Notes under the pieces: model-generated
Seen by the model: the letters and a program-made list of their open reading frames with translations, nothing else
The model's database searches: none
Told to the model about the DNA's origin: nothing
Shown here: piece by piece, positions 372-61,264 of the stretch
Layout of the letters: each line of letters opens with the position of its first letter
Numbering within the stretch: position 1 is the stretch's first letter
Position numbers and translations under genes: made by a program
Assembly (NCBI GenBank): GCA_023473795.1
Contig: JAMCYS010000033.1
Coordinates: 1-64,000 of the forward strand
Direction of reading: 5' to 3'
DNA from: Chloroflexota bacterium
GTDB lineage: Bacteria > Chloroflexota > UBA6077 > FW602-bin22 > JAMCYS01
Length of the DNA stretch: 64,000 bases

Positions 372-932
372 GTGAACCCGTTGATGCCGTTGGCGGTCCT
401 CTGGGAGATGCATGTCCAGGTGCCCGAGATATTCGACCGCCACCAGGCATACAGGATGGCGCGGCAGTACTGCCGCGCCGTGGGCAAGCCCCTGCTGCGG
501 GTGGGGATTCGCCGCGGCTTTCTAGAGCCGCCTAACGGCGACGCGACCCTGGATATTGATCCGATCATCCGCCGCATTGCAGGCGGGGTACAGGGAGACG
601 AGCGCGCGATGCCCATGTTCGCTGACAAGCAATTTGGCGCCGCGTTCAATGAGCAGACCCTCGAGCACCTGCACTCAGCCGAGGATGTGCGTCTGGCCGT
701 GGGCGAATGTGTACGGGTGGCCGATTACGCCTATCTCTTGGTCCCGTCGCCGGCCGGCATAATCGCCCATTTGCACCCGACCCACTACCTGGCAATCCGG
801 ATCGTTCAGGGCGGGCTGGCGGTGCGGCGCGTGTTCCACGCCGACCAACCGGCGGTCTTTGTGCCCGTCCCTCACGCGCGGCGCGCGCTAGACAGTCTCG
901 TCATCGGCTATAGCGGAGGTGTCACGGGATGA
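372..932 (+). CDS. Methyltransferase-fold-like protein (paralog of next gene)
   Basis: GKPLLRVG...LDIDP...FGAAFNEQTLEHL...RVADYAYLLVPSP; shares pattern with 929..1432. Confidence 0.5.
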   Translation: MNPLMPLAVLWEMHVQVPEIFDRHQAYRMARQYCRAVGKPLLRVGIRRGFLEPPNGDATLDIDPIIRRIAGGVQGDERAMPMFADKQFGAAFNEQTLEHLHSAEDVRLAVGECVRVADYAYLLVPSPAGIIAHLHPTHYLAIRIVQGGLAVRRVFHADQPAVFVPVPHARRALDSLVIGYSGGVTG

Positions 933-1432
933 ATCCGTTGTTGCTCGTTCCGGCGTGGCAGGGGCTCGTGTGGATGGGAGAGGGCATCGTTCGCCGTTCG
1001 AAGTACGACGCGGCCCAGGCCTACGCGCGCCAACAGGGCAAGCCGTTGCTCGTGGTCGGCGGGCCCCAGGGCAGCCCGTCGCGGGCGGCGCTGGGCATGC
1101 AGGGCCACGGGTTCGGCGACGTCTGCCTGGATCTCGACCCGGCGATGTGCCAGGGCGCGCCAGAGACAACGGTAGTCGTTGGGGCCGACGTGCGCGGCAT
1201 CCCATACCCGGACCATCACTTCGGCGCGGCGTTTGTCAGCCACGTACTGGAGCATCTGCCCACCGCGGCCGACGCCTGGTGGGCGATTGAGGAGTTGCGG
1301 CGGGTAGCCGACGCGCTGTGGGTCGCCGGACCCTCCAAGCAGGAACTCTGGGCCTGGGTCCATCCAGAGCACCATCTTTGGGTGTGGCAGGACGGGAGCG
1401 GCCAGATGCACGTGGAGGAGAGGGGCCGATGA
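929..1432 (+). CDS. Class I SAM-methyltransferase-like protein
   Basis: GKPLLVVGG...DVCLDLDP...GADVRGIPYPDHHFGAAFVSHVLEHLPT..EELRRVADALWVAGPS; ATGA overlap with upstream ORF. Confidence 0.55.
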   Translation: MNPLLLVPAWQGLVWMGEGIVRRSKYDAAQAYARQQGKPLLVVGGPQGSPSRAALGMQGHGFGDVCLDLDPAMCQGAPETTVVVGADVRGIPYPDHHFGAAFVSHVLEHLPTAADAWWAIEELRRVADALWVAGPSKQELWAWVHPEHHLWVWQDGSGQMHVEERGR

Positions 1433-1890
1433 TCGTCGAGATCCTGGGCCAGCTGGCCGCCGGCCTGGCGGGCGGGGCGCTGGAGACGGCGCTCCAGGCC
1501 AAACGCAACCCCGCCAAGAAGAAGCCGGGCCAGAAGAAGGCCTCCCGAGTCAAGGGCCGGGAGAACCGGGACCTGCGCCGGGCCAAACGGCTGGCGGAGA
1601 AGTTTCACGGCACCTGGCAGGACAATGTGGTCGAGTTGTCGGCCAAGGACCGCAGGAAGCCCTCCCGCTACGCGGTGGTCGCCGGCGAGCTGAAGGACTA
1701 TACCTACTCGCCCCGCAAGGGCAAGCGGGCGGAGTACGACTGGCACCACGATTCGCTCGACAAGGGCTTTGGCCGCGGCAAGGGCAAGAAGAAGCCGCTG
1801 CTGGTGGTGGATCCGGCCACCAAGAAGCCGGCGATCGTCGCCAACCGGGCGGCGGTGAAGTTCGACCCGCGCCGCGGCTTCATGGGTTAG
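1429..1890 (+). CDS. Basic, Lys-rich element protein with hydrophobic N-terminus
   Basis: ATGA overlap with previous CDS; MIVEILGQLAAGLAGG...KRNPAKKKPGQKK. Confidence 0.6.
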   Translation: MIVEILGQLAAGLAGGALETALQAKRNPAKKKPGQKKASRVKGRENRDLRRAKRLAEKFHGTWQDNVVELSAKDRRKPSRYAVVAGELKDYTYSPRKGKRAEYDWHHDSLDKGFGRGKGKKKPLLVVDPATKKPAIVANRAAVKFDPRRGFMG

Positions 1891-1947
1891 GCGTCAACTT
1901 GAGCCACCAGGGCTCAAGGATGATAGATCACGACAGGAGGTTTCCCC

Positions 1948-2019
1948 ATGGCCAAGCGCAGGACACCGCCCCGCGACTCCAAGGGCCGCTTTCGCAAGCG
2001 GCGCAAGGGCCGCCGCTAG
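1948..2019 (+). CDS. 23-aa highly basic mini-protein MAKRRTPPRDSKGRFRKRRKGRR
   Basis: ATG with AGGAGG RBS at correct spacing; 12 of 23 residues are K/R. Confidence 0.5.
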   Translation: MAKRRTPPRDSKGRFRKRRKGRR

Positions 2020-2084
2020 GCGGCGCGGGGGCGCCGGCGGGGACCTCTCCGCCGGCGCTCAGCCAACCATTCGGGGGGTGAGTT

Positions 2085-2378
2085 ATGGCCAAGAGTTGGA
2101 AAGAGACCGTCAAGGCGGAGTTCGCCAAGGTGCCCAAGAATAGCCCGTTCTCGGAGTACCAGAAGGCGCTCAAGCGGGCCTCGCGCGTCTACCACGGCGC
2201 CACGGAGCCGGCGCGGGTCAACCCGAGCCGGGCCCGGGCGACGCGCGCCAATCCGAGGAGCGACGACCTGCTGATGCTGGCGGTCATCGCAGCCATGGGC
2301 TACGTCGGCTGGCGGTATCTGCGGCAGCATCCGGAGATTCTCAACCCGCCGGCGGCGACGGCCGCCGTGCGGCCTTGA
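2085..2378 (+). CDS. Small basic protein with single C-terminal TM segment
   Basis: 97 aa ORF; RANPRSDDLLMLAVIAAMGYVGWRYLRQHPEILNPP. Confidence 0.55.
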   Translation: MAKSWKETVKAEFAKVPKNSPFSEYQKALKRASRVYHGATEPARVNPSRARATRANPRSDDLLMLAVIAAMGYVGWRYLRQHPEILNPPAATAAVRP

Positions 2379-2420
2379 GGAGGAACCTGCTTGTAGCGGC
2401 CGGGCGCCGCGCCTAGAGGG

Positions 2421-2462
2421 GTAGGGGCGAGGGTCGCCCGCGCGGGCGACCCTCGCCCCTAC
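2421..2462. repeat. 42-bp perfect palindrome GTAGGGGCGAGGGTCGCCCGC/GCGGGCGACCCTCGCCCCTAC
   Basis: Read directly; two perfect 21-nt arms, 20 bp upstream of ATPase start. Confidence 0.9.
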
Positions 2463-2481
2463 AATGCGGGAGGTCTGATAC

Positions 2482-3528
2482 TTGGCACTCAACGCGGCCA
2501 ATCTGCGCCGTCTGGCCCAGTCGGCGCCCACCGCCGCCAGGCTCTACCAGGCATGGCAACGGGCCCAGCGGGGCGACCGGCAGGCCATCGACTACCTGCG
2601 CTCGGAGGGCTGGGCCGAGGCGGTAGACCTGCTGGTCGCTCCCGGCGCCGGCGCCGTGGCCAAGGAGGCGCTGGGCCACGCCACGGACGCCTACCGCGTG
2701 CTGCGAGGCATCCGCCCGACGTCCGGGGGCGACGTCGTCGACGCCGAGTATCGCGTGCTGGAGGAGACGGAGGCCGAGGCCGGCCCGCGGCCGCCCTGGT
2801 CGCCCTTCCTGGCGCGGATGTTCAGGCAACCATACGGAGGCCATGTGATTCTCGGCGGCGTGGGCAGCGGAAAGACAAGCCTGGCGGTCAAGCTCGCCCA
2901 TCGGTATCAGCAAGAACACGGCTTCGCGGTGGAATGCTGCCAGATGTATGGGGAGGACCTTCCTCCCTTCGCCGTGAGCATCGGTAAAGACACACTGGTC
3001 AAACGCATGGACCGCCTTTCCCGATTCCTCGACAGCCAGAACGAGAACGACGAGGACGCTCCGGATGCGGAATGGGAGCAGCCACGCCTGGTGAACGGGC
3101 CAGCGGCGATGCCACCCCGCGGCCGGGTGATCATCATCGACGAGGCCAGCCTAAGCCTGTCAAATAACCCGCACGACCCTACCCGGCGAGCCGCGATTCA
3201 GGCGCTGACGCAGTGCCGTCACGTTTCATATGTTGTTCTCTACATAGCCCAGTGGGCCGGCCAGTTGCCGCTCAGCCTGTTGGGCCAGACAACGGCGTGG
3301 ATCAAGTCCCCCGACGGGCGGGAGGCATTTACCGATCGAGACAACTTCGCGGTCAAGGACCTGTGGCGTAGGGCCGGGGACGCCTTCCATGGGCTCAAGG
3401 ACTCGGCGTGGTACGTGGACCCCCACCGCGACCGGCGCTCGTGGGCCTTTGTGGACGCGCCGCCGATCAATGGCATTCGTGGCTACTCTGGGCTCATCCC
3501 CTTCACCCCATACAAGGCGGGAGACTAG
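2482..3528 (+). CDS. P-loop ATPase, packaging-type (HerA/FtsK/Zot-like superfamily)
   Basis: Walker [10 protein letters not shown], Walker [11 protein letters not shown], following beta strand YVVLYIAQ with polar Q; TTG start with GGGAGGT RBS. Confidence 0.7.
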
Positions 3529-4121
3529 ATATGACGCCAGGTCCGGCGCTCGACGATGCAAAGCACGCTCTTGCGATCAATCCCGTAGTCGCGGGCGAGA
3601 GCGGCCTTGTTGTGCTCTCCCGCCGCCCAGCGCCGGCGGATCGCCAGTACGTCCTCCGGGATGAGCCGCGACACGCGGACCATCTCGCCTCGGGGGTAGA
3701 GCTCCGGGTAGAGTCGAGTGGAACAGCGATCACCTCTAGCCGACCTGCCTTTGCGGGTCATGTCGGCAGAATTGTCCGCCGGCGTACCAACAAACAAGTG
3801 AGCCGGATTGCAGCACAGAGGGTTGTCGCAACTGTGGCAAACCAGCATGCCGAGGGGGATCGGGCCGTTGGTGAGTTCCCAGGCTACGCGATGGGTCAGA
3901 AGGTGCTGGCGCCGATAGGTGAATTGCCCGTAACGCCTGGCGAAGCCAACATAAGGCCAGCAGTCGGTGGGGCCGCCTCTGGCAACGCGGGGCCAGAATC
4001 GCTCAGCCAGACTGCGCACGCGGGAGAAGTGGCCCGGGCGGAATCGGTGTTCTGGGCTCACCGCCTCACCACATCCGCAGGCGCAGAGGCGTGGGTTGTC
4101 TATGGTAGGATGGGCGCGCAT
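3525..4121 (-). CDS. HNH homing-type endonuclease with C-terminal HTH
   Basis: [29 protein letters not shown] and [30 protein letters not shown]. Confidence 0.8.
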
Positions 4122-4216
4122 GGCGAGTTTCCTTTCGCTATGCCACGCTCCGGGCTGTTACAGCAGTGCCGGAGCGCTTTGTCGTCACCGATTATAGCAC
4201 TTGGCGAGGTAGCGGC

Positions 4217-4381
4217 ATGAAGCGCAACCCCGGCAAGGCGAAGAGAATCGAGCGGCGAATCGGCAACGCCGCCAAACGGGACGGCCACAAACGACTGGCC
4301 GCCAAGACACGCGAGATGAAGGCCACGAAGCCAAGGGTCTATTACAGCTGGCGCAATCGCCGGCGGAAACAAGGGAGGTAG
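4217..4381 (+). CDS. 54-aa basic protein MKRNPGKAKRIERRIG...
   Basis: Internal ATG of ORF 4166..4381 after GAGGTAG. Confidence 0.5.
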   Translation: MKRNPGKAKRIERRIGNAAKRDGHKRLAAKTREMKATKPRVYYSWRNRRRKQGR

Positions 4382-4383
4382 TC

Positions 4384-4590
4384 ATGCTCAGGTACAAAGA
4401 CGGTCTATCGTTCCGCCGGGAGAGCGACGGCGCCGTGGCGGTGGTAGTGGAGACCCGCGGCGACGGCGGCCACGTGGCCACGGTCAAAGAGTGGACGATC
4501 GACCCGGCCAACTGGGTCAACATCGTCGCCGCCCTCTCGGCCGAGGGCAAGCCGGCCAAGGGCAAACTGGCCCAGATCCACGGGGCGTAG
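4384..4590 (+). CDS. Hypothetical small protein
   Basis: 68 aa ORF with AGGGAGGTAGTC RBS. Confidence 0.5.
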   Translation: MLRYKDGLSFRRESDGAVAVVVETRGDGGHVATVKEWTIDPANWVNIVAALSAEGKPAKGKLAQIHGA

Positions 4591-4593
4591 GCC

Positions 4594-5205
4594 GTGGAGC
4601 CGGTCTACCTCTGGCACGAGTCCAAGCCGTCGCCCTCCATCCTCGAGGAGAGGGTAAGGCACGCTCTTGGCATCACGCGCGCGGAGAGATTCCGGCGAGT
4701 CCGCGACCCTTGGGGTAACTACGTCGACGTCGAACTGGACCGGGTGCTCGATCACATCGCCAATCACCCAACCGATCACCGGCGCTGGGAGATGATCCCG
4801 GCGATCATACCGGCGATCAAGCGAGCGACGCACATGTACGAAAGCGGCTCGCGGCAGAAATATGAGGCGAGACTGAGGGTCTATAGCCCAAGCAGCGGGC
4901 GGTACGAGAGGGTGGTTTTCGTGGCGACCGTGTACTTAAGCGGCGGACGCCGCGTATTTGATTCCTTGGTGGCACCGACCAAAGAGCGTGTCGTCGAGCA
5001 CGAGCGCCGGACTGCGGGGCCGCTACGGTCCGTGCGGGATAACCCCGTCAGACAATGGTCAACGCCAGCGCCCGGAGCTCTGGCGGACAGCCGGCGGACT
5101 CCTACGCATTCTCCGGGAACTGCGTCCGCTCGGTACAGACATGATAGCACCATCGCGGCCGTCGCCGCAAGGGCCGTCGATCTTCTGACCGTGCTGTTTG
5201 GGTAG
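4594..5205 (+). CDS. Hypothetical protein, possible PBECR-like (phage barnase/EndoU/colicin/RelE-like) nuclease
   Basis: VLDHIANHPTDHRRWEMIPAIIPAI...YEARLRVYSPSSGRYERVVFVATVYLSGGRRVFDSLVAP pattern. Confidence 0.35.
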   Translation: MEPVYLWHESKPSPSILEERVRHALGITRAERFRRVRDPWGNYVDVELDRVLDHIANHPTDHRRWEMIPAIIPAIKRATHMYESGSRQKYEARLRVYSPSSGRYERVVFVATVYLSGGRRVFDSLVAPTKERVVEHERRTAGPLRSVRDNPVRQWSTPAPGALADSRRTPTHSPGTASARYRHDSTIAAVAARAVDLLTVLFG

Positions 5206-5249
5206 TGAGCGGCCGGCGCTAGCGCCGGCCGAAAGATCGGAGGAGAATC

Positions 5250-5534
5250 ATGACCGCGGAAGCCCTCGCATTGTTGATCGCGGGTATCGTCGCGCCGTTC
5301 ATCGTGCAGTTCGTCAAGGCCGGCAGGCTCTCGGACCTGTGGGCGTTCTGGCTCACCGTGCTCGTCTCCGTGCTGCTGGCGACCGTGGCCGAGCTGCTCA
5401 CCGGCGGCCTGCCGCCGTCGACGGAGGCATTCTTCGTCAGGGCCGCGGCTGTCTTCGCGCTCGGGCAGATAATTTGGCGCAACGTGTTCAAACCGGCCAT
5501 CGAGGCGCGCGCCGCGGCCGCAGGGAACGGCTAG
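5250..5534 (+). CDS. Small multi-TM holin-like protein
   Basis: Three hydrophobic segments, RBS GGAGGA. Confidence 0.5.
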   Translation: MTAEALALLIAGIVAPFIVQFVKAGRLSDLWAFWLTVLVSVLLATVAELLTGGLPPSTEAFFVRAAAVFALGQIIWRNVFKPAIEARAAAAGNG

Positions 5535-5614
5535 CGCCAGGTATCAATTGACCTAGAGCCCAAAACAGGGACCTAGAATCGCCTTGTAGAGAGCCGTCTC
5601 GACGGCAGAATGGG

Positions 5615-5935
5615 CTATGGCAGGTGTCTCCACGTCCTTCGGCTGACAATATCGCGAATGTGCCCGGCGGTTACGCCGTGTTGGCGGGCCAGCACGGCCG
5701 CAGGGATACCGCTCGCCCTATCCGCCCGGATCTGGCCTACTTCGATCGCCGTCAGACTGGCGGCCGGGTGGGTCTCTCCCTGTGGTCGCCTCTCGGGGTG
5801 CGTATAGTTGCCGTTGCACTCCCCGAAGGAAGGGCTGAAACGACCTTTGGCCCTCATGTCAGCCATGTTGTCGGCGTGAGTGCCAAGGAAGAGGTGATCC
5901 GGCCGGACACAGCTTCTGACGTCGCACCTGTGAAG
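5615..5935 (-). pseudogene. Truncated HNH homing endonuclease (C-terminal half)
   Basis: Minus frame LHRCDVRSCVRPDHLFLGTHADNMADM...SLTAIEVGQIRADRASGIPAAVLARQHGV...RRTWRHLP, homologous to 3525..4121 but N-terminus missing. Confidence 0.6.
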
Positions 5936-6049
5936 AACGTCAAGGCCGTCCAGCGGCATTTGGGCCACGCCAGCCTGCAGTCGACGGCCATTTACACCCA
6001 GCTGACGGACGAACACGCACGACAGCTGATCGCCGGCGCCAAGTTCTAG
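5929..6049 (+). pseudogene. Tyrosine recombinase remnant (C-terminal about 40 aa)
   Basis: VKAVQRHLGHASLQSTAIYTQLTDEHARQLIAG contains the LGH...Y catalytic box. Confidence 0.65.
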
Positions 6050-6052
6050 CGT

Positions 6053-6346
6053 ATGGACGACAACGTGACACGGAGGACACTGAAGATGCTGCACCCGCCA
6101 GCGCCCAAGACGACGGAAGAGCGGATTGTCGAGATCTACGCCTGCCTGCAGATCATCAAAGGCCAGCTCGCGGCGATCGAGACGAAGCTCGACAACATCT
6201 GCGACAACTGCGAGGTGGAGGAGAACCGACTTAAGGCCCTCGAGGAGTGGCGGACATCTGTGAGGGGTGGGCTCAAGGTGCTGGGCGTGATCGCGGGCGC
6301 GGCCGGGGTCGTGGGCGGCCTGGTGGTGAAGGTTTTCAACCCCTAG
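6053..6346 (+). CDS. Coiled-coil plus C-terminal TM protein, XhlA-like
   Basis: EIYACLQIIKGQLAAIETKLDNICDNCEVEENRLKALEEW...GVIAGAAGVVGGLVVKVF. Confidence 0.5.
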   Translation: MDDNVTRRTLKMLHPPAPKTTEERIVEIYACLQIIKGQLAAIETKLDNICDNCEVEENRLKALEEWRTSVRGGLKVLGVIAGAAGVVGGLVVKVFNP

Positions 6347-6536
6347 ATAGGAGGTAGACATGGTTACGACCTTCCTCGGCGGTATCGCCAGCGGCGCCGG
6401 CTTCGCCCTCGGCGCCGGCGGCCTCAGCGCCTGGGCCAACCAGCGCCAGAAGAAGAAGAAAGCCGAGAAGAAGAACCCCGTCTGCCGAGCGAGACGGGGG
6501 GGTGGCCGGCGTCGAGGGCGCCGGAGGAGACGAGTC

Positions 6537-7277
6537 TCAGCCCATCCCTGACTCAGGGACCCCCGTCCGCCGGCGCCGTTTGTACTCGCGGTCGTAGCGT
6601 CGTTGTACCGCCGGCCGGCAGGCCGGGCAATATCTCTCGCGGTGGCTCTCGGCCGTGAACGCCTGGCCGCACTCGGGACAGACGACCTCGCGCGGTCGGT
6701 GCAGGCTGGCCTGGACGGCGGCCGGGATCTGACCCCGCAGCCGCTCCCGGTCCACCGCCTCGGGGTGCTCGGCATAGTAGCGCCGCAGGCCGGCCGAAAT
6801 CGCCTCTGGCGTAGATTTGTCCAAGCCAGCCAGGTTGCGCTGGCGGCGCCGCTCAGCCCTGGCCGGGTCGCCCGCGAACGCCTCGCTCCGGTGCTGGCTC
6901 GCCTCGGGACGCAGGCCCTGCTCGATGGCCGTCACCGCCTCCGCCTTGTCCTCGGCCCAGCGCTGGCGGTCCTCGCCCCAGTTGCGCAGCTTGCCCTGGG
7001 CGCGCAGGCGTTCGATGATCGGCGCCGTGGCCGCACGCAGGCGCTCGCGCATCGTCTCCGACACCAGCCGCGTCTGCCGGTTGAGCCCGGCCCATTCGCG
7101 GTAGTCATCGGCCTCCAGGCCGTGGGCCAGGCGGGCGTGCTGAGCCAGGCTATGGCAATATCGGCCACAGGCGTGGCACAGCAGTCGGCCATCCTCGTCG
7201 CGCTCGAGCCGGCCAACCTCGCCATAGGGTGAGGCCTCGACCAGGCTGGGGCAGGAGGGGCCACGCCGTCTAGTCAT
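6537..7277 (-). CDS. MucR/Ros-like zinc-finger regulator with C-terminal zinc ribbon
   Basis: LLCHACGRYCHSLAQHARLAHGLEADDYREWAGLNRQTRLVS and CPECGQAF..RYCPACR; ATG at 7277. Confidence 0.65.
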   Translation of the reverse strand: MTRRRGPSCPSLVEASPYGEVGRLERDEDGRLLCHACGRYCHSLAQHARLAHGLEADDYREWAGLNRQTRLVSETMRERLRAATAPIIERLRAQGKLRNWGEDRQRWAEDKAEAVTAIEQGLRPEASQHRSEAFAGDPARAERRRQRNLAGLDKSTPEAISAGLRRYYAEHPEAVDRERLRGQIPAAVQASLHRPREVVCPECGQAFTAESHRERYCPACRPAVQRRYDREYKRRRRTGVPESGMG

Positions 7278-7488
7278 CGGGCTCCCCCGATCCGCTCTGG
7301 TCCGGCCGGGCCGTCGTGCCGTAGACGACTCTACCGGTGTTGTCTTTGAGAACGATGTCCGCCGAGTAATGGGCGCCACACTTGTCGCAAACCAGGCCCT
7401 CGTCACCCGGAACGAAGTGCCCGCAGTTGAGGCAGTCAAAGTTCACCCATAGATTTAGCCCGTCGAAATAGCCTTCTCGTTCAGCCAT
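7270..7488 (-). CDS. Zinc-ribbon mini-protein
   Basis: CLNCG...CDKCG, 72 aa. Confidence 0.55.
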   Translation of the reverse strand: MAEREGYFDGLNLWVNFDCLNCGHFVPGDEGLVCDKCGAHYSADIVLKDNTGRVVYGTTARPDQSGSGEPDD

Positions 7489-7505
7489 TTTCTACCAGCT
7501 CGCCG

Positions 7506-7670
7506 CTAGGGCAGTAGGGTCTGGGCCACAGTGGTGGCGCTCGCCGAGACGATCGCCAGCGCGGCCAGTGCCACCAGGCCGACGTCGCCGCTGCCGCTGG
7601 CCCAGGCCAGCCCCACGGCACAGACCGCCGCCACTCCCAGCGCGATCGCGACCCTCTGCCAGCGTTTCAC
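7506..7670 (-). CDS. 54-aa two-TM protein
   Basis: GTG start, VKRWQRVAIALGVAAVCAVGLAWASGSGDVGLVALAALAIVSASATT; GTGA overlap with upstream gene. Confidence 0.45.
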   Translation of the reverse strand: MKRWQRVAIALGVAAVCAVGLAWASGSGDVGLVALAALAIVSASATTVAQTLLP

Positions 7671-7813
7671 TTCCCCGCCTGCCTCCTACATTCCGCCCCG
7701 CAATAGGCGCACCCACACTCGCTATCGTACCAGACTACGCTCCCCGCGGGGAGCCAGCGCCGGCAGACGGCGCAGTACTGCCCCGCGTGGAGCCGCGCGC
7801 GATAGACGGCCAT
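7667..7813 (-). CDS. 48-aa zinc-binding mini-protein
   Basis: MAVYRARLHAGQYCAVCRRWLPAGSVVWYDSECGCAYCGAECRRQAGK. Confidence 0.5.
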   Translation of the reverse strand: MAVYRARLHAGQYCAVCRRWLPAGSVVWYDSECGCAYCGAECRRQAGK

Positions 7814-8097
7814 TATCGGGGCCCTCCCCGCCCCGTTTTAGCTCTATCGCCACGGGTAAGATGGTCAATCTTCGCAAGGTTCCGCCCAGCGCGCACCAGG
7901 TTGTATACCGCGTAGCAGAGATTGAAGACTGCCCAGATTTGAAAGAAGATGGTCGCGGCGTTCAACCAGCCTCTAGGCGGGGGCGCGAACGGCAGTGCTT
8001 GCCCGATCAGCCAGGTGATAACAAGGCTGGCGACTGCGCCCCCAGCGATCACGGCCATACACTCCCTGTATTCGCTGAGCCACGTCTTGATCCTCAT
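7813..8097 (-). CDS. Small membrane protein
   Basis: 94 aa ORF with two hydrophobic segments. Confidence 0.5.
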   Translation of the reverse strand: MRIKTWLSEYRECMAVIAGGAVASLVITWLIGQALPFAPPPRGWLNAATIFFQIWAVFNLCYAVYNLVRAGRNLAKIDHLTRGDRAKTGRGGPR

Positions 8098-8112
8098 TGC
8101 TGTTATTCCTCC

Positions 8113-8496
8113 CTACACCGGCCGCGGCCGGCGCGGCCGCGGCAGCAACAATTGATTCTTGGCCAGCCGCTCCGGACCGGGCAGGGCCCTCACCCGGACC
8201 ACTAGGTTCAGCGGATCCGTGCGATCGACATGCAGGCTGTAGGAGGCCTCGCACTGACCACAGACCAGCATCGCGCTCCCCGTGAGCACGGCGCCGGCGC
8301 CGCCGCACTCGCAGGAGACGAGCAGCCGCGGGATCACCGGCGGCCGCCCCTCCTCGCTGTGCAGGTTCAGAGTCATCTCGAGCGGCCGGTCGAGCTTCTC
8401 AAACTTGTACTCCCTGAGCAACTGAGCGAAGGCGAAGTCGACGAAGACGGGCGCCGGGCCCGCCGTCGACATCGGCTCTCCATTACCGTCTGTCAT
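8113..8496 (-). CDS. Zinc-ribbon protein of element
   Basis: CECGG...CGQC; internal start MTDGNGEPMSTAG. Confidence 0.45.
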   Translation of the reverse strand: MTDGNGEPMSTAGPAPVFVDFAFAQLLREYKFEKLDRPLEMTLNLHSEEGRPPVIPRLLVSCECGGAGAVLTGSAMLVCGQCEASYSLHVDRTDPLNLVVRVRALPGPERLAKNQLLLPRPRRPRPV

Positions 8497-8707
8497 TTCT
8501 TCCCCCTCTACGCAGTCGCCTCCGGACAACGACGACCTCCTCGTCCCCGAAGCGGACCAGCATCGAGCCGTTGCGGCCGCAAATGCACGTCTTACCACCA
8601 GGCGTGAAGATCGCCTCGCAGCGCCGGCCCACCAGGTCGGAGCGCGTGCGGCCCTGCACCGGGTTGGTCTTGCTGGGAGCCGTGCCGAGGTAGACGTACT
8701 CGCGCAT
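8483..8707 (-). CDS. Small hypothetical protein MREYVYLGTAPSKTNPVQGRTRSDLVGRR...
   Basis: Internal ATG of ORF 8483..8896. Confidence 0.45.
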   Translation of the reverse strand: MREYVYLGTAPSKTNPVQGRTRSDLVGRRCEAIFTPGGKTCICGRNGSMLVRFGDEEVVVVRRRLRRGGRNDRR

Positions 8708-9033
8708 CAGGCCCACCGGATGGCCACGAGGTTGTTGGCGACCACCCAGCCGTACCCCGCCACGGCGACGATGGCGCCCAGGGGCAGCAAGGCATCTATT
8801 GGTTTGTTGTCCTTTCCCCACGGTGCCCACCCGGCCGGCAGTGCGCCAGCGCGCATCAGCGGTCCCGTCACCAGGTCCTGAATTGCGAACAGACACGCCT
8901 CATCGGGAAACCTCTTGCTGGCGTGGATGGCCACCAGCCCCCGGTACGACGTCGACCAGGACCGCGTCTCGATCCGCTTGGCGCCGATCGCCACGAGGCT
9001 GGCCCAGGGCTGGGTCAGAGAGAGCGCTTTCAC
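8707..9033 (-). CDS. ASCH-domain protein
   Basis: VKALSLTQPWASLVAIGAKRIETRSWSTSYRGLVAIHASKR; exact start uncertain (GTG within ORF 8707..9141). Confidence 0.7.
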   Translation of the reverse strand: MKALSLTQPWASLVAIGAKRIETRSWSTSYRGLVAIHASKRFPDEACLFAIQDLVTGPLMRAGALPAGWAPWGKDNKPIDALLPLGAIVAVAGYGWVVANNLVAIRWA

Positions 9034-9242
9034 GGCTGGGCCTTCTCTCTCCGCGATCGGTCGTGCCGGCGTTGGCACTCGGCGCAGCGCTTCCAGTAGA
9101 GCGAGTCGCCCGTCTCGAACTCGTCGCCGAGATACAGCCACTTGCCACAGAGGCTCCTACCGTCCGGCCCGATGTAGTGCAGCCTGCCGGCGCCGTCGAT
9201 CCGGGCCCAGCCTTGGCCCCGGGCGGCCTTCTTGTCGGCCAT
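9030..9242 (-). CDS. Small Cys-containing protein
   Basis: SLCGKW...KRCAECQRRH. Confidence 0.5.
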   Translation of the reverse strand: MADKKAARGQGWARIDGAGRLHYIGPDGRSLCGKWLYLGDEFETGDSLYWKRCAECQRRHDRSRREKAQP

Positions 9243-9697
9243 CAGTTCATCCTCCCGGCGGCGCTCACCGCCGCCAATTTGGCCTCGATCTCCGCGTCCA
9301 GGGCGCGCTGCTCGACCCGCCAGCCGGCGAGCCAGTCCGTCAGCAGCTCGTTCATGACTCCGGGCGCGCTGTCCCAGTAGACGACGGGCAGGCAGACCCG
9401 GTCCGCCTCGAGCAGCTCGCGGCGCGTGCCCTCGGAGCGCATGGCCACGGGCTCGGGCACGCAGCAGACCACCAGGTCGCCACGCCGCAGCAGATCCAGC
9501 GCCGCCTCGAGCAACGTCTGTTCGGGTACGATTACCTCCAGGCCGCCCGTGTTGAGGTGAGGCACAATTACGGCGAAGCCCAGGCGCAGCAGGGCCACGC
9601 CCACTAGGTGGGCGTGCCGGACGTTGGCGGCGACGCGCTCTGGACGGTCGTCGCGGTAGGGGCCGCAGACATAGGCGACCGGTTTCGGTTCGGCCAT
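9242..9697 (-). CDS. DUF4406/nucleoside deoxyribosyltransferase-like protein
   Basis: VAYVCGPYRDDRPERVAANVRHAHLVGVALLRLGFAVIVPHLNT; ATG at 9697. Confidence 0.6.
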   Translation of the reverse strand: MAEPKPVAYVCGPYRDDRPERVAANVRHAHLVGVALLRLGFAVIVPHLNTGGLEVIVPEQTLLEAALDLLRRGDLVVCCVPEPVAMRSEGTRRELLEADRVCLPVVYWDSAPGVMNELLTDWLAGWRVEQRALDAEIEAKLAAVSAAGRMN

Positions 9698-9711
9698 TGG
9701 TTCTGGACCTC

Positions 9712-10560
9712 CTAGCCAGGTTGGAGAGCCTCCGGGGAGCGCTCCCAGGGCCGCGTTTCCAGCCAGCGGCGGGCGGACACGTGACTGCGTCCCAGCCGAC
9801 CCGGTGGCTTCCGCGCCAGGGCCGCCGCCGCCGCGATCAGCCATTCGTCGAGCCCCGGCGGCCCGGCAGTTATGGCACGTTGCCAGGCCTCAAACTCTCG
9901 TTGTTCGGGCCCCTGGTGGCTCGGATAGAACGTCCTGAACTGTAAGTACTTGGGGGGGCGACTTTGCGGCGCCGCACTGTCTGTACTCATGTCTTTAATT
10001 CTCATGTCTGTCATGTCTTTAATCTTCGCAGCTTCATTTTGAAGCTGCTGGCAGCTTACTTTTGAAGCTGCTGGATCCGGCAGCAGCTTCATTTCTAAGC
10101 TGCTGAGCAGCTTCATTTTGAAGCTGCTGCCGTTTTCATCCTCCTCCACCAGCAGCTCACTTTTGAAGCTGCTATCCTCTTCTGGAGGAGGCTCAGCCTC
10201 CGCCAGACCGTCGTCCGCCGCCGGCAAGGACAGCTGGGTGCCGGGCGCCGTGGCGCGCAGGCGGTAAACGTAGGTGCCGTGGGCCACCCGCCGCAGCCGC
10301 TCCAGCACCTGGTGCTCCAGCGCCAGGTGGAGGCCTCGCTGCACCGCCGCCCGGCTGAGGCCCGTCATCTGGCAGAGCAGCGTATCGCTCATCGGGCAGC
10401 AGTCGCGCCGCCAGCCGAGGGTCAACCGCAGCGCCGCCAACACGACCTTGATCTCGGCGCCCGTCATCCGCGGCAGGCCCTCGTCGAAGATCTCGTTGGG
10501 CACCTTGACGAAGCCCCGACCGTTGGCGATGCCGACGAACTTCCACTCCTCGTCAGCCAT
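9712..10560 (-). CDS. Replication initiator, lambda O/RepO-like winged helix
   Basis: FVKVPNEIFDEGLPRMTGAEIKVVLAALRLTLGWRRDCCPMSDTLLCQMTGLSRAAVQRGL; ATG at 10560. Confidence 0.65.
   Translation of the reverse strand: MADEEWKFVGIANGRGFVKVPNEIFDEGLPRMTGAEIKVVLAALRLTLGWRRDCCPMSDTLLCQMTGLSRAAVQRGLHLALEHQVLERLRRVAHGTYVYRLRATAPGTQLSLPAADDGLAEAEPPPEEDSSFKSELLVEEDENGSSFKMKLLSSLEMKLLPDPAASKVSCQQLQNEAAKIKDMTDMRIKDMSTDSAAPQSRPPKYLQFRTFYPSHQGPEQREFEAWQRAITAGPPGLDEWLIAAAAALARKPPGRLGRSHVSARRWLETRPWERSPEALQPG
10028..10174. repeat. Five 23-bp palindromic iterons GCAGCTTCATTTTGAAGCTGCTG (10028, 10051, 10083, 10107, 10152)
   Basis: Read directly; two identical copies (10028, 10107) and three near-identical. 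Confidence 0.9.
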
Positions 10561-10617
10561 GGCCAGCACCGGCACCCCCTTGTAGTCGATGTAGTCGATC
10601 GGACACCGCGGGCGACA

Positions 10618-14208: not shown

Positions 14209-14403
14209 CTACGCCGCGACTACCTGGTCCATCGGGAGGTTCAGAGCATCGGCAACTCGCTTGAGTGTCTTGGTACCCAGCTGCTTGCCAAGCTCTAAGC
14301 GGCATATCGTCGAGACGTGTACCCCAACGCGCCCGGCCAGGTCGCTCTGCGTCATGCCCTGTTGGATTCGCGCTATTTTCAACGCCTCTGTGTTGATCCT
14401 CAT
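14209..14403 (-). CDS. XRE-family (Cro-like) regulator
   Basis: LKIARIQQGMTQSDLAGRVGVHVSTICRLELGKQLGTKTLKRVADAL. Confidence 0.8.
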   Translation of the reverse strand: MRINTEALKIARIQQGMTQSDLAGRVGVHVSTICRLELGKQLGTKTLKRVADALNLPMDQVVAA

Positions 14404-14445
14404 ACGTTTTCCCTCCGAGGGCTGTCTGTCCGATATATCAAGCAC

Positions 14446-14474
14446 ATGGTACGTAGCTTCGCGCTCTCTGTCAA
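14446..14474 (-). promoter_or_regulatory. Sigma70-type promoter for Cro-like gene (TTGACA-17-TACCAT)
   Basis: Read on minus strand upstream of 14403. Confidence 0.55.
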
Positions 14475-14563
14475 GCGTTTTTTGCGCGGGTTTTCGTGCA
14501 ATTTTGTGCCAATTCAGCCTAGCGCTCCTATAATCAGCCAAGGAGCAGTCGTCTGGGGGGCGT

Positions 14564-15013
14564 ATGTCGGAGGGCCAAGAGACTTTCGGCCAACACATCA
14601 GGCGAGCGAGACTGCGACTCGGCTACAGCGTGCGGAAGGTAGAACTGCTCACGTCTCGCCTGCCCGAGGAGCAGCGGGTCTCTAATTCCTACCTCTCACA
14701 GGTCGAGCGGGACGAAGTGCCTCCCCCATCGCCAGCGAAAATCATGGGTCTGTCGAAGGTGTTGAGCCTTGACTATGAGGATCTGATGCGGCGAGCAGGA
14801 CATCTTCCTGGAGAGCGTGTTGAGGACATTGCCTTGCCCGTCGGTGTCGATCTCTCCGATCCCAACCTGCGCCTCACTTTGCAGAAATTGGCCGAGCTGC
14901 CCCCCGAGGACAGGGCCGAGTTTCTCCGCATGATAACGCCCCTGCTTGACCAGGCGCGCGATCTACAGCGTATGCGGGCGGAGCGTCGCCGCCAGAGGGA
15001 GGGCCAAGGATAG
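14564..15013 (+). CDS. XRE-family repressor (CI/ImmR-like)
   Basis: FGQHIRRARLRLGYSVRKVELLTS...VSNSYLSQVERDEV. Confidence 0.75.
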   Translation: MSEGQETFGQHIRRARLRLGYSVRKVELLTSRLPEEQRVSNSYLSQVERDEVPPPSPAKIMGLSKVLSLDYEDLMRRAGHLPGERVEDIALPVGVDLSDPNLRLTLQKLAELPPEDRAEFLRMITPLLDQARDLQRMRAERRRQREGQG

Positions 15014-15016
15014 AGG

Positions 15017-15511
15017 GTGCGCCATGAGTTGTCTCCGATTGAGCGGTTCATTGTCGCCCACGACCTGCACCGGCACGTGCCGGTGGACCTTGGGCCGCTG
15101 CGGGAGCTCGCCCCCGTCAAATTTCTGAGGCTGTCAGAGGGCACGCTGGGTGGAGCCTTCGCCAACGAGGTGGGCTGCGTCATCGGTATCAACCGCAGCC
15201 TGGGCCGCGATGAGCGACGGATGACGTTCTGCCACGAGCTGGCGCACCTGATTCTAGAGCATCCGAATAGTCTCTGGCTGTGCCGCATCGACGGCTGGTG
15301 GTACAGCCGGTACGAACGCCAGGCGCAGCAGGCCGCGGCCCTGATGCTAATTCCGTTCGAGCCCTTGCGGCGGCGACTGCTTGCCGGCTATGCCGTCGAG
15401 GCCGTCGCCGGCGCGTTCCGAGTGCCTCGGAGTTTAGTCGAGTTGCGGGTCGCAATGGCCGAAGATCAGCTGCTACCGCGGGTTCGAATGCCGCAAAGAA
15501 CGACGGTCTAG
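15017..15511 (+). CDS. ImmA/IrrE-family metallopeptidase
   Basis: MTFCHELAHLILEH zinc motif; follows XRE repressor. Confidence 0.85.
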   Translation: MRHELSPIERFIVAHDLHRHVPVDLGPLRELAPVKFLRLSEGTLGGAFANEVGCVIGINRSLGRDERRMTFCHELAHLILEHPNSLWLCRIDGWWYSRYERQAQQAAALMLIPFEPLRRRLLAGYAVEAVAGAFRVPRSLVELRVAMAEDQLLPRVRMPQRTTV

Positions 15512-15534
15512 AGGTCGTTCTCCGGCCGTACAGG

Positions 15535-16338
15535 ATGCCAATGCCCAGAGCAACTAGCGACGAGTTGTGGGTCATAGCCGGTTTCTTGGGGCTGCTGCTG
15601 GTCGCCCTGGCGGTGCGTGGCAACCGGGTCTACCGGGGCCGACGCAAGGGAATCAGCAACGGCGGGTTCTTCTTGCGCCTGGTGTTTGCCGGCCTTGGCG
15701 ACCTCAGCACCACTCAGTTGTTTGTGGTTGTCATCATTGTGTTGCTGGCGCTGGCCATCGCTAACACCAGGTTTGGATTCTTGCCCTTCGAGTCTGAGTG
15801 GCTCCTGGTGGTCGGGTTCAGCCTGGCTATCGGCGTGGTGGCGGACAGCATCTGGCATTGGTCGTGGTCCTGGTTTCGGGAGCGGCGAGACTCCGCCGCA
15901 CTGCGGAGCCGAACGGCTACATTGGCTGATCTCGTGATGCTCACGCCCGCCGAGTTCGAACGGCGCATCGAGAATCTACTGCGTGGGCTCGGCTTCGACT
16001 CGGTGGAGCACGTGGGCAGGAGCGGCGATCTCGGTGTCGACGTCAAGTGCCGCGCGGGGCGGGAGCGGGTGGCCGTGCAGTGCAAGAAGTACAGCCCAGG
16101 CCGAAACGTCGGCTCGAAGGAGGTGCAGCAGTTCTACGGCATGATGAGGCATCCGCGCCACGGCGCGACGCGGGGCATCTTCATCACCACCAGCGGGTTC
16201 ACGCCGGACGCCGCAGGGCTGGCCGAAGACCCGCACTTGGTGCTGTTGGACGGGCAGGCGTTAGTGAATCTGATCAACCGCCCGGGCGGCAATGACGACG
16301 GGGATTCGTGGTCGGCCGTGGAGCGGCATAGCATCTGA
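15535..16338 (+). CDS. TM-anchored Mrr-like restriction endonuclease
   Basis: Two to three TMs then LTPAEFERRIENLLRGLGFDSVEHVGRSGDLGVDVKCRAGRERVAVQCKKY. Confidence 0.75.
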   Translation: MPMPRATSDELWVIAGFLGLLLVALAVRGNRVYRGRRKGISNGGFFLRLVFAGLGDLSTTQLFVVVIIVLLALAIANTRFGFLPFESEWLLVVGFSLAIGVVADSIWHWSWSWFRERRDSAALRSRTATLADLVMLTPAEFERRIENLLRGLGFDSVEHVGRSGDLGVDVKCRAGRERVAVQCKKYSPGRNVGSKEVQQFYGMMRHPRHGATRGIFITTSGFTPDAAGLAEDPHLVLLDGQALVNLINRPGGNDDGDSWSAVERHSI

Positions 16339-18903: not shown

Positions 18904-19416
18904 TTGATGGTTAGCTGGAACGGCGATAGCGCCTACACCGCGCGGGCGGTGCGCGACCTCGGGGAAGTGGAGCAGCTGGCGAGCTGTCTCCTGCCGGCGG
19001 CGGGGATCAGCGCCCCGCCCGTGCCGGAGAACATCGTCGCCTTCTGCGACTCGGGGCGGCCGGTGAAGATCTACCGCCGGCCGCTGGGGGCTATGCACGG
19101 CCTGCTCGAGCCCAGCCCGGAGGGCTGGCTCATCATCGTCAACGAACGCCTGCCGCGGGGCGCCCAGCGCTTCTCCATCGCCCACGAGGGCTTCCATCTG
19201 TTGCAGCGCTCGCGCGGCCTGCTCTGCGACGGGCCCCACGAGTACCAGGAGTGGCTCGCCGACGGCTTCGCGGCGCGCCTGCTGATGCCGCGGCGCTGGT
19301 TGACGGAGATCTCCGCCCGCCGGGTCGATCTGGGGATGCTCGCCTACATCTTCCGCGTCTCCCGCCGCGCCATGGAGCGGCGTCTAGGGGAGTTGGCTTT
19401 GCACCCGGGAGGCTGA
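18904..19416 (+). CDS. Second ImmA/IrrE-family metallopeptidase
   Basis: FSIAHEGFHLLQRSRG...EWLADGFAARLLMP. Confidence 0.75.
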   Translation: MMVSWNGDSAYTARAVRDLGEVEQLASCLLPAAGISAPPVPENIVAFCDSGRPVKIYRRPLGAMHGLLEPSPEGWLIIVNERLPRGAQRFSIAHEGFHLLQRSRGLLCDGPHEYQEWLADGFAARLLMPRRWLTEISARRVDLGMLAYIFRVSRRAMERRLGELALHPGG

Positions 19417-19419
19417 ACG

Positions 19420-20580
19420 ATGGCCAGACCGCGAGCCAAGGGCAACGGCGAAGGAACCCTCTACAAGCGGCCCGACGGCCGTTGGTGCGGCCAGTACGTC
19501 GTCGGCTGGGTCGGCGGCAAGCCGCGGCGGATCACCGTCGTCGCCGACACGAAGCACGAGGCCGACCGTCTGCTGAGCGCCAAGAAGCGCGACCACGCCG
19601 AGGGCCGGCTGGCGCCGCCCCAGCGGCAGACGTTGGCGGAGTACGTGGCCTGGTGGCTAGCAAACGTGGCCGCCAATCGCCTACGGCCGCGCACTCTCCA
19701 GAGCTACGAGCGGACGCTGGCGCTGCATTGCCTGCCCTACCTCGGAGGCCTCCGCCTGCAGCAGCTGGCGCCGCGCGATCTGCAGACCCTCTACGCCGAG
19801 CGGCTGGCGTCCGGCGCCGGCGCCCGCACGGTGCAATACCTCCACGCGGTGCTGCACCGCGCCCTCCACGACGCCGAGCGGCTCGAGATGGTGGGCCGCA
19901 ACGCCGCCGACCGGGCGGACCCGCCCCAGGTCGAGAGGGAAGAGGCGCCGACCCTCGACCTCGAGCAGGGGAGGGCGCTCTTGGCCGCGGTGAGGGACAC
20001 GCCGGCGGAGGGGCTAGTCGCTCTGGCTTTGTTGACCGGTCTGCGCCAGGGCGAGCTCTTAGGCCTGCGCTGGAGCGACGTCGACTGGACCGTGCCGCAG
20101 ATCGCCGTGCAGCGAACGCTCTCGTGGGTACTGGGCCGCGGCCCGATCTGCGTGCCCCCGAAATCGAAGAACAGCCGTCGCCTCGTGCCACTCGTGCCCC
20201 AGGCGGTGGAGGCGCTGCGCCGAGCGCGGATCCGGCAGAACGAGCAGCGCCTGGCGGCCGGTCCGGAGTGGCAGGACGGCGACCTGGTCTTCAGCACCCG
20301 CAGTGGCCGACCACTCAGTCCGCGCAACGTGCGGCGCGACTGGTTCGGGCCGGCCCTCGAGCGGGCGCAGCTGCCGCCGGTCCGCTTCCACGATCTGCGG
20401 CACACCGCAGCCTCGCTGCTGCTGAGCCTGGGCGTGGCGCTCACCACCGTGCAGCGGATCCTGGGTCATGCTAACATAGGCATCACGGCCGACACCTACG
20501 GGCACCTCTTGCCTGGGATGGCGACGGAGGCAATGCGCCTCTACGGAGAGGCGCTGAGCGCGGACGAGCTGCAGCAGTAG
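19420..20580 (+). CDS. int: Tyrosine recombinase/phage integrase
   Basis: LLTGLRQGELLGLRW, FHDLRHTAASLLLSLGVALTTVQRILGHANIGITADTYGHL. Confidence 0.93.
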   Translation: MARPRAKGNGEGTLYKRPDGRWCGQYVVGWVGGKPRRITVVADTKHEADRLLSAKKRDHAEGRLAPPQRQTLAEYVAWWLANVAANRLRPRTLQSYERTLALHCLPYLGGLRLQQLAPRDLQTLYAERLASGAGARTVQYLHAVLHRALHDAERLEMVGRNAADRADPPQVEREEAPTLDLEQGRALLAAVRDTPAEGLVALALLTGLRQGELLGLRWSDVDWTVPQIAVQRTLSWVLGRGPICVPPKSKNSRRLVPLVPQAVEALRRARIRQNEQRLAAGPEWQDGDLVFSTRSGRPLSPRNVRRDWFGPALERAQLPPVRFHDLRHTAASLLLSLGVALTTVQRILGHANIGITADTYGHLLPGMATEAMRLYGEALSADELQQ

Positions 20581-60958: not shown

Positions 60959-61264
60959 GTGAGCGGCGACATGACAGTCAAAGAGGCTGGACGCAGGGGC
61001 GGGCGAGTGGTCAAGGAACGCTACGGTTCCGGCTTCTACTCGCAGATTGGCAAGAAGGGTGGCGAGGCGGTTGCCGAGCAGCGGGGCGCGGAGTTCTACT
61101 CCCAGATCGGCAAAAAGGGCGGCGATACGGTCAAGGAGCGGCACGGGGCCGAGTTTTACGCCGAGATCGGCAAGAAGGGCGGCACGGCCGTCAGAGAGAA
61201 GCACGGCTCGGATTACTACAGCGAGATCGGCCGCAAGGGCGGCAAGGCCATCAAGAAGAAGTAA
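60959..61264 (+). CDS. KGG-repeat stress/LEA-like protein
   Basis: Four to five about 20-aa repeats GAEFYSQIGKKGGDTVKERH. Confidence 0.88.
   Translation: MSGDMTVKEAGRRGGRVVKERYGSGFYSQIGKKGGEAVAEQRGAEFYSQIGKKGGDTVKERHGAEFYAEIGKKGGTAVREKHGSDYYSEIGRKGGKAIKKK

What the first reader, a model, noticed from the sequence alone, without database searches (positions are those of the whole stretch)
9985..10174. Lambda-like replication origin embedded in a RepO-like initiator gene
Seen: five copies of a 23-bp near-palindrome (GCAGCTTCATTTTGAAGCTGCTG) at 10028, 10051, 10083, 10107 and 10152, inside the gene for a winged-helix initiator (9712..10560, minus). In the reading direction the iterons are followed by an AT-rich stretch with repeated CATGTCTTTAAT (9985-10026), encoding KIKDMTDMRIKDM. 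Known: in lambda, oriL lies inside gene O as palindromic iterons followed by an AT-rich region. The sequences look unrelated to me, so this is the same architecture in a different lineage, possibly convergent.
Basis: partly seen in the sequence, partly recalled or inferred. Interest (0 to 1): 0.7.

Follow-up and report, generated by a model that had tools for sequence, protein, structure and literature searches.

The report
Lambda-type replication origin inside initiator gene
An integrated virus in an uncultured bacterium carries, inside the gene for its own replication-start protein, five copies of that protein's likely docking site next to the easiest-to-melt stretch of DNA in the window: the phage-lambda layout in a far relative, and one of many such cases we found.

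Summary
Five copies of a 21-bp palindrome (coding strand GCAGCTTCA-AAA-TGAAGCTGC) lie inside gene 9712-10560(-). None is expected by chance and none occurs elsewhere in the 4.4-Mb genome. They fall in all three reading frames, so the DNA, not the peptide, is kept. Next to them, at ~9984-10026, is the least stable duplex of the 64-kb window at every size tested.

The gene passes Pfam's cut-off for PF04492 (Phage_rep_O), lambda O's own family, and profile comparison aligns its winged helix with lambda O.

Of 36 non-redundant relatives, 18, including lambda O, have four or more intragenic repeats; 0 of 115 other ORFs do. Repeats differ between lineages, are usually palindromic, and precede an A-rich, AT-rich stretch. 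Repeat similarity tracks recognition-helix similarity rather than the rest of the domain (exploratory, 22 loci).

Best reading: a lambda-type intragenic origin of a provirus; binding and origin activity are not shown. It is a new member of a known kind (lambda, P22, L; SPP1 and P1 are analogous). The wider survey may interest phage-replication specialists.

The parts
9712..10560 (-). RepO-like replication initiator gene (282 aa from ATG 10560; a GTG start at 10575 is also possible)
   Evidence: PF04492 Phage_rep_O 32.7 bits against cut-off 28.7; phrog_678 and four other 'replication initiation O-like' families
10258..10518 (-). N-terminal winged-helix DNA-binding domain (aa 15-101)
   Evidence: AlphaFold2: H22-31, H34-48, H59-66, H70-82, E86-92, E96-101; block-mean pLDDT 67-93 over aa 21-100; hhalign to lambda O aa 27-103
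10152..10172 (-). iteron 1 in gene order, GCAGCTTCAAAAGTGAGCTGC, frame 1 (SSFKSELL)
10107..10127 (-). iteron 2, GCAGCTTCAAAATGAAGCTGC, frame 1 (SSFKMKLL)
10083..10103 (-). iteron 3, GCAGCTTAGAAATGAAGCTGC, frame 1 (SSLEMKLL)
10051..10071 (-). iteron 4, GCAGCTTCAAAAGTAAGCTGC, frame 0 (AASKVSC)
10028..10048 (-). iteron 5, GCAGCTTCAAAATGAAGCTGC, frame 2 (QQLQNEAA)
9984..10026 (-). putative DNA unwinding element, A-rich on the coding strand
   Evidence: least stable duplex of the 64-kb window at 42/60/100/200 nt
9987..10023 (-). AT-rich 13-mer repeats (coding strand ATTAAAGACATGA at 9987-9999 and 10011-10023; partial copy at 10002-10014)
9733..9939 (-). C-terminal part (aa 208-276), weak similarity to a phage primosomal protein family; presumed helicase or replisome contact
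   Evidence: phrog_9327, E 0.0034, aa 171-276; low AF2 confidence; function inferred
14209..14598 (-). Cro/CI-type HTH regulator at the head of the leftward early genes
   Evidence: PF01381 HTH_3
14564..15013 (+). divergent CI-type HTH regulator, followed by an ImmA/IrrE-type peptidase gene (15017-15511)
   Evidence: HTH_3 (below cut-off) and Peptidase_M78
19420..20580 (+). tyrosine integrase at the right side of the provirus
   Evidence: PF00589 Phage_integrase E 1.6e-24

Best explanation
This is the theta-type replication origin of an integrated temperate virus, built like ori-lambda. The winged-helix domain of the RepO-like protein, as a dimer or pair of monomers, binds each palindromic iteron in the middle of its own gene. 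Several bound molecules wrap and bend the iteron block (an O-some), torsion melts the adjacent A-rich, AT-rich stretch at ~9984-10026, and the C-terminal part brings the host DnaB helicase, directly or through a loader not seen in the held part of the element. Shown by sequence: family membership, DNA-level repeat conservation, palindromy, position, extreme duplex instability, and the same layout in relatives. Inferred: binding, melting, helicase recruitment and origin activity.
For: Iterons confirmed and unique in the genome, in three reading frames. Gene over the PF04492 cut-off, lambda O in the same family (123 bits), hhalign match to lambda O, AF2 winged helix followed by a low-confidence linker. 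Adjacent stretch is the least stable duplex of 64 kb. The same scan recovers lambda's four annotated iterons in frames 0, 2, 2, 1. 18 of 36 relatives against 0 of 115 other ORFs have families of four or more repeats (Fisher p 1e-13). In 22 iteron-bearing relatives: copies in more than one frame in 20, downstream AT above the gene mean in 19 (p 2e-4), A>T on the coding strand in 21, palindromic at p<0.05 in 15. Iteron similarity follows recognition-helix identity (partial Mantel r 0.22, p 0.004) and not the rest of the domain. Relatives sit on circular plasmids, e.g. Deinococcus P6, next to dnaB, with no other replication initiator in the listed genes.
Against: No close homolog was found, so conservation of this exact iteron could not be tested. 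Half of the domain hits, including some from the same class or phylum and a tandem-winged-helix subfamily, lack clear repeats. No helicase or loader gene was found among the genes examined in the held 20.6 kb, and the left end of the element is off the contig. A-rich coding of the downstream stretch may partly reflect Lys/Asn codons in a linker. The Mantel signal rests largely on four pairs.
Confidence: 0.85

Rival explanations
1. The repeats are a drifting in-frame peptide or codon repeat in a disordered linker, with no DNA function.
For: They encode part of a low-confidence linker; three of the five share one frame.
Against: The same DNA is kept in all three frames with unrelated peptides; palindromic; relatives show the same with unrelated sequences and multiple frames in 20 of 22.
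Confidence: 0.03
2. The palindromes are operators: the protein or a phage repressor binds them to regulate transcription or autoregulate, and replication starts elsewhere.
For: Palindromes of this size are typical of dimeric HTH regulators; binding inside the gene could also block transcription.
Against: No copy at the CI/Cro divergent region or anywhere else in the genome; five clustered copies next to the weakest duplex of the window fit an origin better; lambda O and its iterons are a tested precedent (PMC7466680).
Confidence: 0.06
3. The module is a relic in a defective provirus: the origin was functional but the element no longer replicates. (This is compatible with the best explanation of what the sequence is.)
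For: Left end of the element unseen; no helicase or loader found; genomes of the same class with syntenic provirus genes gave no RepO hit.
Against: Open frame intact; iterons and AT-rich stretch well preserved; integrase, repressor pair and early-gene order intact.
Confidence: 0.2
4. Architecture reached by convergence: an unrelated winged-helix protein acquired intragenic iterons independently of lambda O.
For: Iteron sequences unrelated; protein only 23% identical to lambda O over the aligned domain.
Against: PF04492 above cut-off and hhalign E 2.8e-10 to lambda O over the winged helix; same order and position in about 20 other relatives.
Confidence: 0.07

Closest known systems
Phage lambda O gene / ori-lambda (PF04492)
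   Same: Same Pfam family; iterons after the winged helix in the middle of the gene, in three frames, with A-tract centres on the coding strand, followed by an A-rich AT-rich stretch
   Different: Unrelated iteron sequence; five rather than four copies with looser spacing (45, 24, 32, 23 against 20, 24, 23); repeated 13-mers in the AT-rich part; no lambda P-type gene seen next to it
P22 and phage L gene 18 origins
   Same: Distant O relatives with different repeats inside their coding regions (PMC8022706)
   Different: P22 and L have their own DnaB-type helicase (gp12); none found here
RepO-like gene of Deinococcus gobiensis plasmid P6 (L028)
   Same: Palindromic CCAGCCAAAATTTGGCCGG iterons in the same place, AT-rich stretch after them
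   Different: Followed by dnaB; on a circular plasmid
RepO-like genes of Bacillus carboniphilus and B. thuringiensis plasmids (L027, L029/L040)
   Same: Among the closest by protein (36% over the domain for L027); GTTCG-N5-CGAAC iterons 23 bp apart in several frames
   Different: Other iteron sequence; on extrachromosomal plasmids, the B. carboniphilus one phage-like
SPP1 gp38/oriL and P1 RepL/oriL
   Same: Origin inside the initiator gene; SPP1 oriL is direct repeats plus an AT-rich unwinding element (PMC6316719); P1 repL needs an internal A/T-rich region (PMC9948254)
   Different: Other initiator families, as far as I know; analogy, not membership

Membership tests
Phage_rep_O (PF04492) initiators | Profile match above the curated cut-off | tested here: met
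   32.7 bits against 28.7; profile-profile match to lambda O
Phage_rep_O (PF04492) initiators | N-terminal winged-helix DNA-binding fold | tested here: met
   AF2 H-H-H-H-E-E; viral fold hit annotated 'Bacteriophage lambda, GpO, N-terminal', E 4.2e-4
lambda-type intragenic origin | Several ~20-bp palindromic iterons inside the initiator gene, after the DNA-binding domain | tested here: met
lambda-type intragenic origin | AT-rich element adjoining the iterons on the C-terminal side | tested here: met
   least stable duplex of 64 kb
lambda-type intragenic origin | Initiator binds the iterons specifically | not testable with these tools
   indirect only: iteron similarity tracks the recognition helix across relatives
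lambda-type intragenic origin | Fragment supports replication with the initiator | not testable with these tools
   needs a plasmid assay
lambda O/P module | Helicase loader (P) or own DnaB encoded next to the initiator | tested here: inconclusive
   no loader or helicase among the proteins scanned in the held 20.6 kb, but not every small ORF was scanned and the left end of the element is missing

The most novel reading that the evidence does not exclude
A lambda-type intragenic origin works in a provirus that is not a tailed phage (Zot/packaging-type ATPase and small membrane proteins; no terminase, portal or tail assembly genes recognised) and that has no loader of its own, so the RepO-like protein itself would load the host helicase; and iteron sequence across the RepO family can be predicted from the recognition helix.
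Probability: 0.15. Interest if true: 0.55.

Novelty: new member of a known kind. Interest (0 to 1): 0.38.

Why it matters
It extends the ori-lambda layout to a distant bacterial lineage and to plasmids of Deinococcus and Bacillus, and suggests that in many RepO-family genes the origin can be read directly from the gene: find the repeats after the winged helix. If the recognition-helix to iteron correspondence holds, the family becomes a natural test set for initiator-origin specificity and a source of compact replicons in which the gene is also its own origin.

Tried and rejected
Single-protein searches of viral contigs with the initiator and with the ATPase found nothing, and ATPase and basic-protein alignments found nothing in viral contigs, so no close relative of the element is available. 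A seven-sequence alignment was too diverse for a locus scan. Sequence search of the PDB gave no relative; fold search of the PDB gave only generic winged helices, none below E 0.001. The peptide-repeat and operator readings were considered and set aside for the reasons given under rivals. RNA hairpin folding was not pursued because palindromes fold regardless of function. The organism could not be named.

Full report
Observation. On the coding strand the consensus is GCAGCTTCA-AAA-TGAAGCTGC, a palindrome with 9-bp arms and an AAA centre. Two copies are exact and three have 2-3 mismatches; no match is expected in shuffled sequence. The pattern occurs nowhere else in the 4.44-Mb genome at up to three mismatches.

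The repeats are kept as DNA. On the coding strand they lie in frames 1, 1, 1, 0 and 2, and encode SSFKSELL, SSFKMKLL, SSLEMKLL, AASKVSC and QQLQNEAA.

The AT-rich stretch is exceptional. 9985-10026 has 69% AT in a window of 34% AT. It is the most AT-rich stretch of the whole 64 kb at 30, 42, 50 and 60 nt, and by nearest-neighbour energies the least stable duplex of the window at 42, 60, 100 and 200 nt (the longer windows extend into the iteron block). It holds two exact 13-mers, TCATGTCTTTAAT, and a partial copy between them.

The protein. It is 282 aa. Pfam PF04492 (Phage_rep_O) scores 32.7 bits against a cut-off of 28.7, and five PHROG families called 'replication initiation O-like' match. 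Lambda O scores 123 bits with the same model. A profile of the window protein with nine relatives aligns with lambda O over aa 15-90 (hhalign probability 96.8%, E 2.8e-10). AlphaFold2 gives a winged helix at aa 22-101 (block-mean pLDDT 67-93), and low confidence at aa 104-167, which holds most of the iteron-coded part. Mean pLDDT is only 53.5, so nothing is claimed about the rest. The C-terminal part matches a primosomal protein family weakly (phrog_9327, E 0.0034).

The family survey. Relatives were chosen by protein similarity to the winged helix, never by repeats. One uniform scan (16-mers, up to 3 mismatches, within 350 bp) was run on all ORFs of 240 aa or more in the loci. Four or more copies were found in 18 of 36 non-redundant winged-helix hits and in 0 of 115 other ORFs (Fisher p 1e-13). 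Lambda O, as positive control, gave its four annotated iterons at aa 116-138 in frames 0, 2, 2, 1. The 18 negatives include hits that are probably not initiators, a subfamily with two winged helices in tandem, and genes with two or three copies.

In 22 iteron-bearing relatives (lambda and the window included) the copies lie in more than one frame in 20. The 45 nt after the last copy are more AT-rich than the gene in 19 (Wilcoxon p 2e-4), and have more A than T on the coding strand in 21. The consensus is more palindromic than its own shuffles at p<0.05 in 15 (approximate, since the best palindrome was searched for in both). Spacing is often 22-23 bp. The centre of the palindromic ones has more A than T in 13, more T in 2, equal in 2. 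Examples: AACTAGCGCAAAAAATGCGCTAGTT in the same phylum (L014), CCAGCCAAAATTTGGCCGG in Deinococcus plasmid P6 (L028), GTTCG-N5-CGAAC in Bacillus plasmids (L027, L040), CATCCCCAAAAATAGGGATG in a siphovirus (L030). The 22 were picked from the survey as the clearest cases, so these proportions describe iteron-bearing genes and not the whole family.

Does the protein read its own repeats? Across the 22 loci, similarity of iterons correlates with identity of the recognition helix (Mantel r 0.22, p 0.003) and not with the rest of the domain (r 0.06, p 0.26); the partial test gives r 0.22, p 0.004. The clearest pair is L043 and L056: nearly the same iteron (GTC-AAA-TTTAGAC), recognition helices GLSKQSVLNG and RLSEQSVRNG, and only 24% identity in the rest of the domain. 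L015 and L045 share GTCAACGAAGTAGAC and the helix LSRQGV. This was an exploratory test driven by about four pairs, and is offered as a lead.

Context. The gene lies in a leftward early block headed by a Cro-like regulator (14209-14598), opposite a CI-like gene (14564-15013) with an M78 peptidase gene; a tyrosine integrase ends the element at 20580. Beyond it are a restriction-modification gene and chromosomal transport genes. The left end of the element is off the contig. No helicase or loader was found among the proteins scanned.

Relatives of the iteron-bearing type sit on circular replicons: Deinococcus P6, where the gene is followed by dnaB and is the only initiator in an incomplete gene list, a B. 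carboniphilus phage-like plasmid (it also has a second, DnaD/DnaC-like pair annotated only as HTH and ATP-binding proteins) and an A. baumannii plasmid.

Mechanism. Best supported is a lambda-type origin: binding to iterons by the winged helix, an O-some, melting of the adjacent weak duplex, helicase recruitment by the C-terminal part. The steps are established for lambdoid phages (PMC7466680 and references in it, for iteron binding and the role of the AT-rich tract; the rest from general knowledge of lambda) and inferred here. Whether the provirus is still active is unknown.

What is known. An origin inside an O-like gene with lineage-specific iterons is already described for lambda, P22 and L (PMC8022706); SPP1 and P1 have origins inside other initiator genes (PMC6316719, PMC9948254). 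The window is therefore a new member of a known kind. What I did not find stated in the papers searched is how widely it holds outside lambdoid phages, or the recognition-helix correspondence; the literature held is partial.

Noticed in passing
window 1318-6346; L081 (G005) 6177-9717; L087 (G023) 5754-8142: A cassette conserved in three genomes of one class: basic protein, small membrane protein, Zot/packaging-like ATPase (38% identical between window and L081) and a ~200-aa protein. L081 adds a spike-like protein and a lytic transglycosylase but no terminase, portal or tail assembly genes were recognised: possibly a provirus family of non-tailed phages.
   Followed up: partly
L081 1-12100 and L087: The genomes with these related proviruses or remnants (G005, G023) gave no PF04492 hit, and no iteron array was seen in the stretches scanned, so the replication module may be exchanged between relatives.
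   Followed up: partly
L010, L022, L025 (one genome, G301): RepO-like proteins of 500-560 aa with two winged-helix domains in tandem and no clear iterons; a separate subfamily.
   Followed up: partly
L029 / L038 (B. thuringiensis pMC54): The RepO-like frame ends within the iteron block (about aa 175), whereas the relative L040 runs on to 375 aa; the gene is annotated as two ORFs.
   Followed up: no
window 372-932 and 929-1432: Two adjacent short proteins, each with a partial Methyltransf_11 match, possibly a tandem duplication within the provirus.
   Followed up: no
window 15280-16338, 3525-4121, 18904-19416: Mrr-type restriction endonuclease, HNH endonuclease and a second M78 peptidase in the provirus.
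   Followed up: no
window 61034-61243: Tandem repeat of 60 bp, 3.5 copies, outside the provirus, apparently coding.
   Followed up: no
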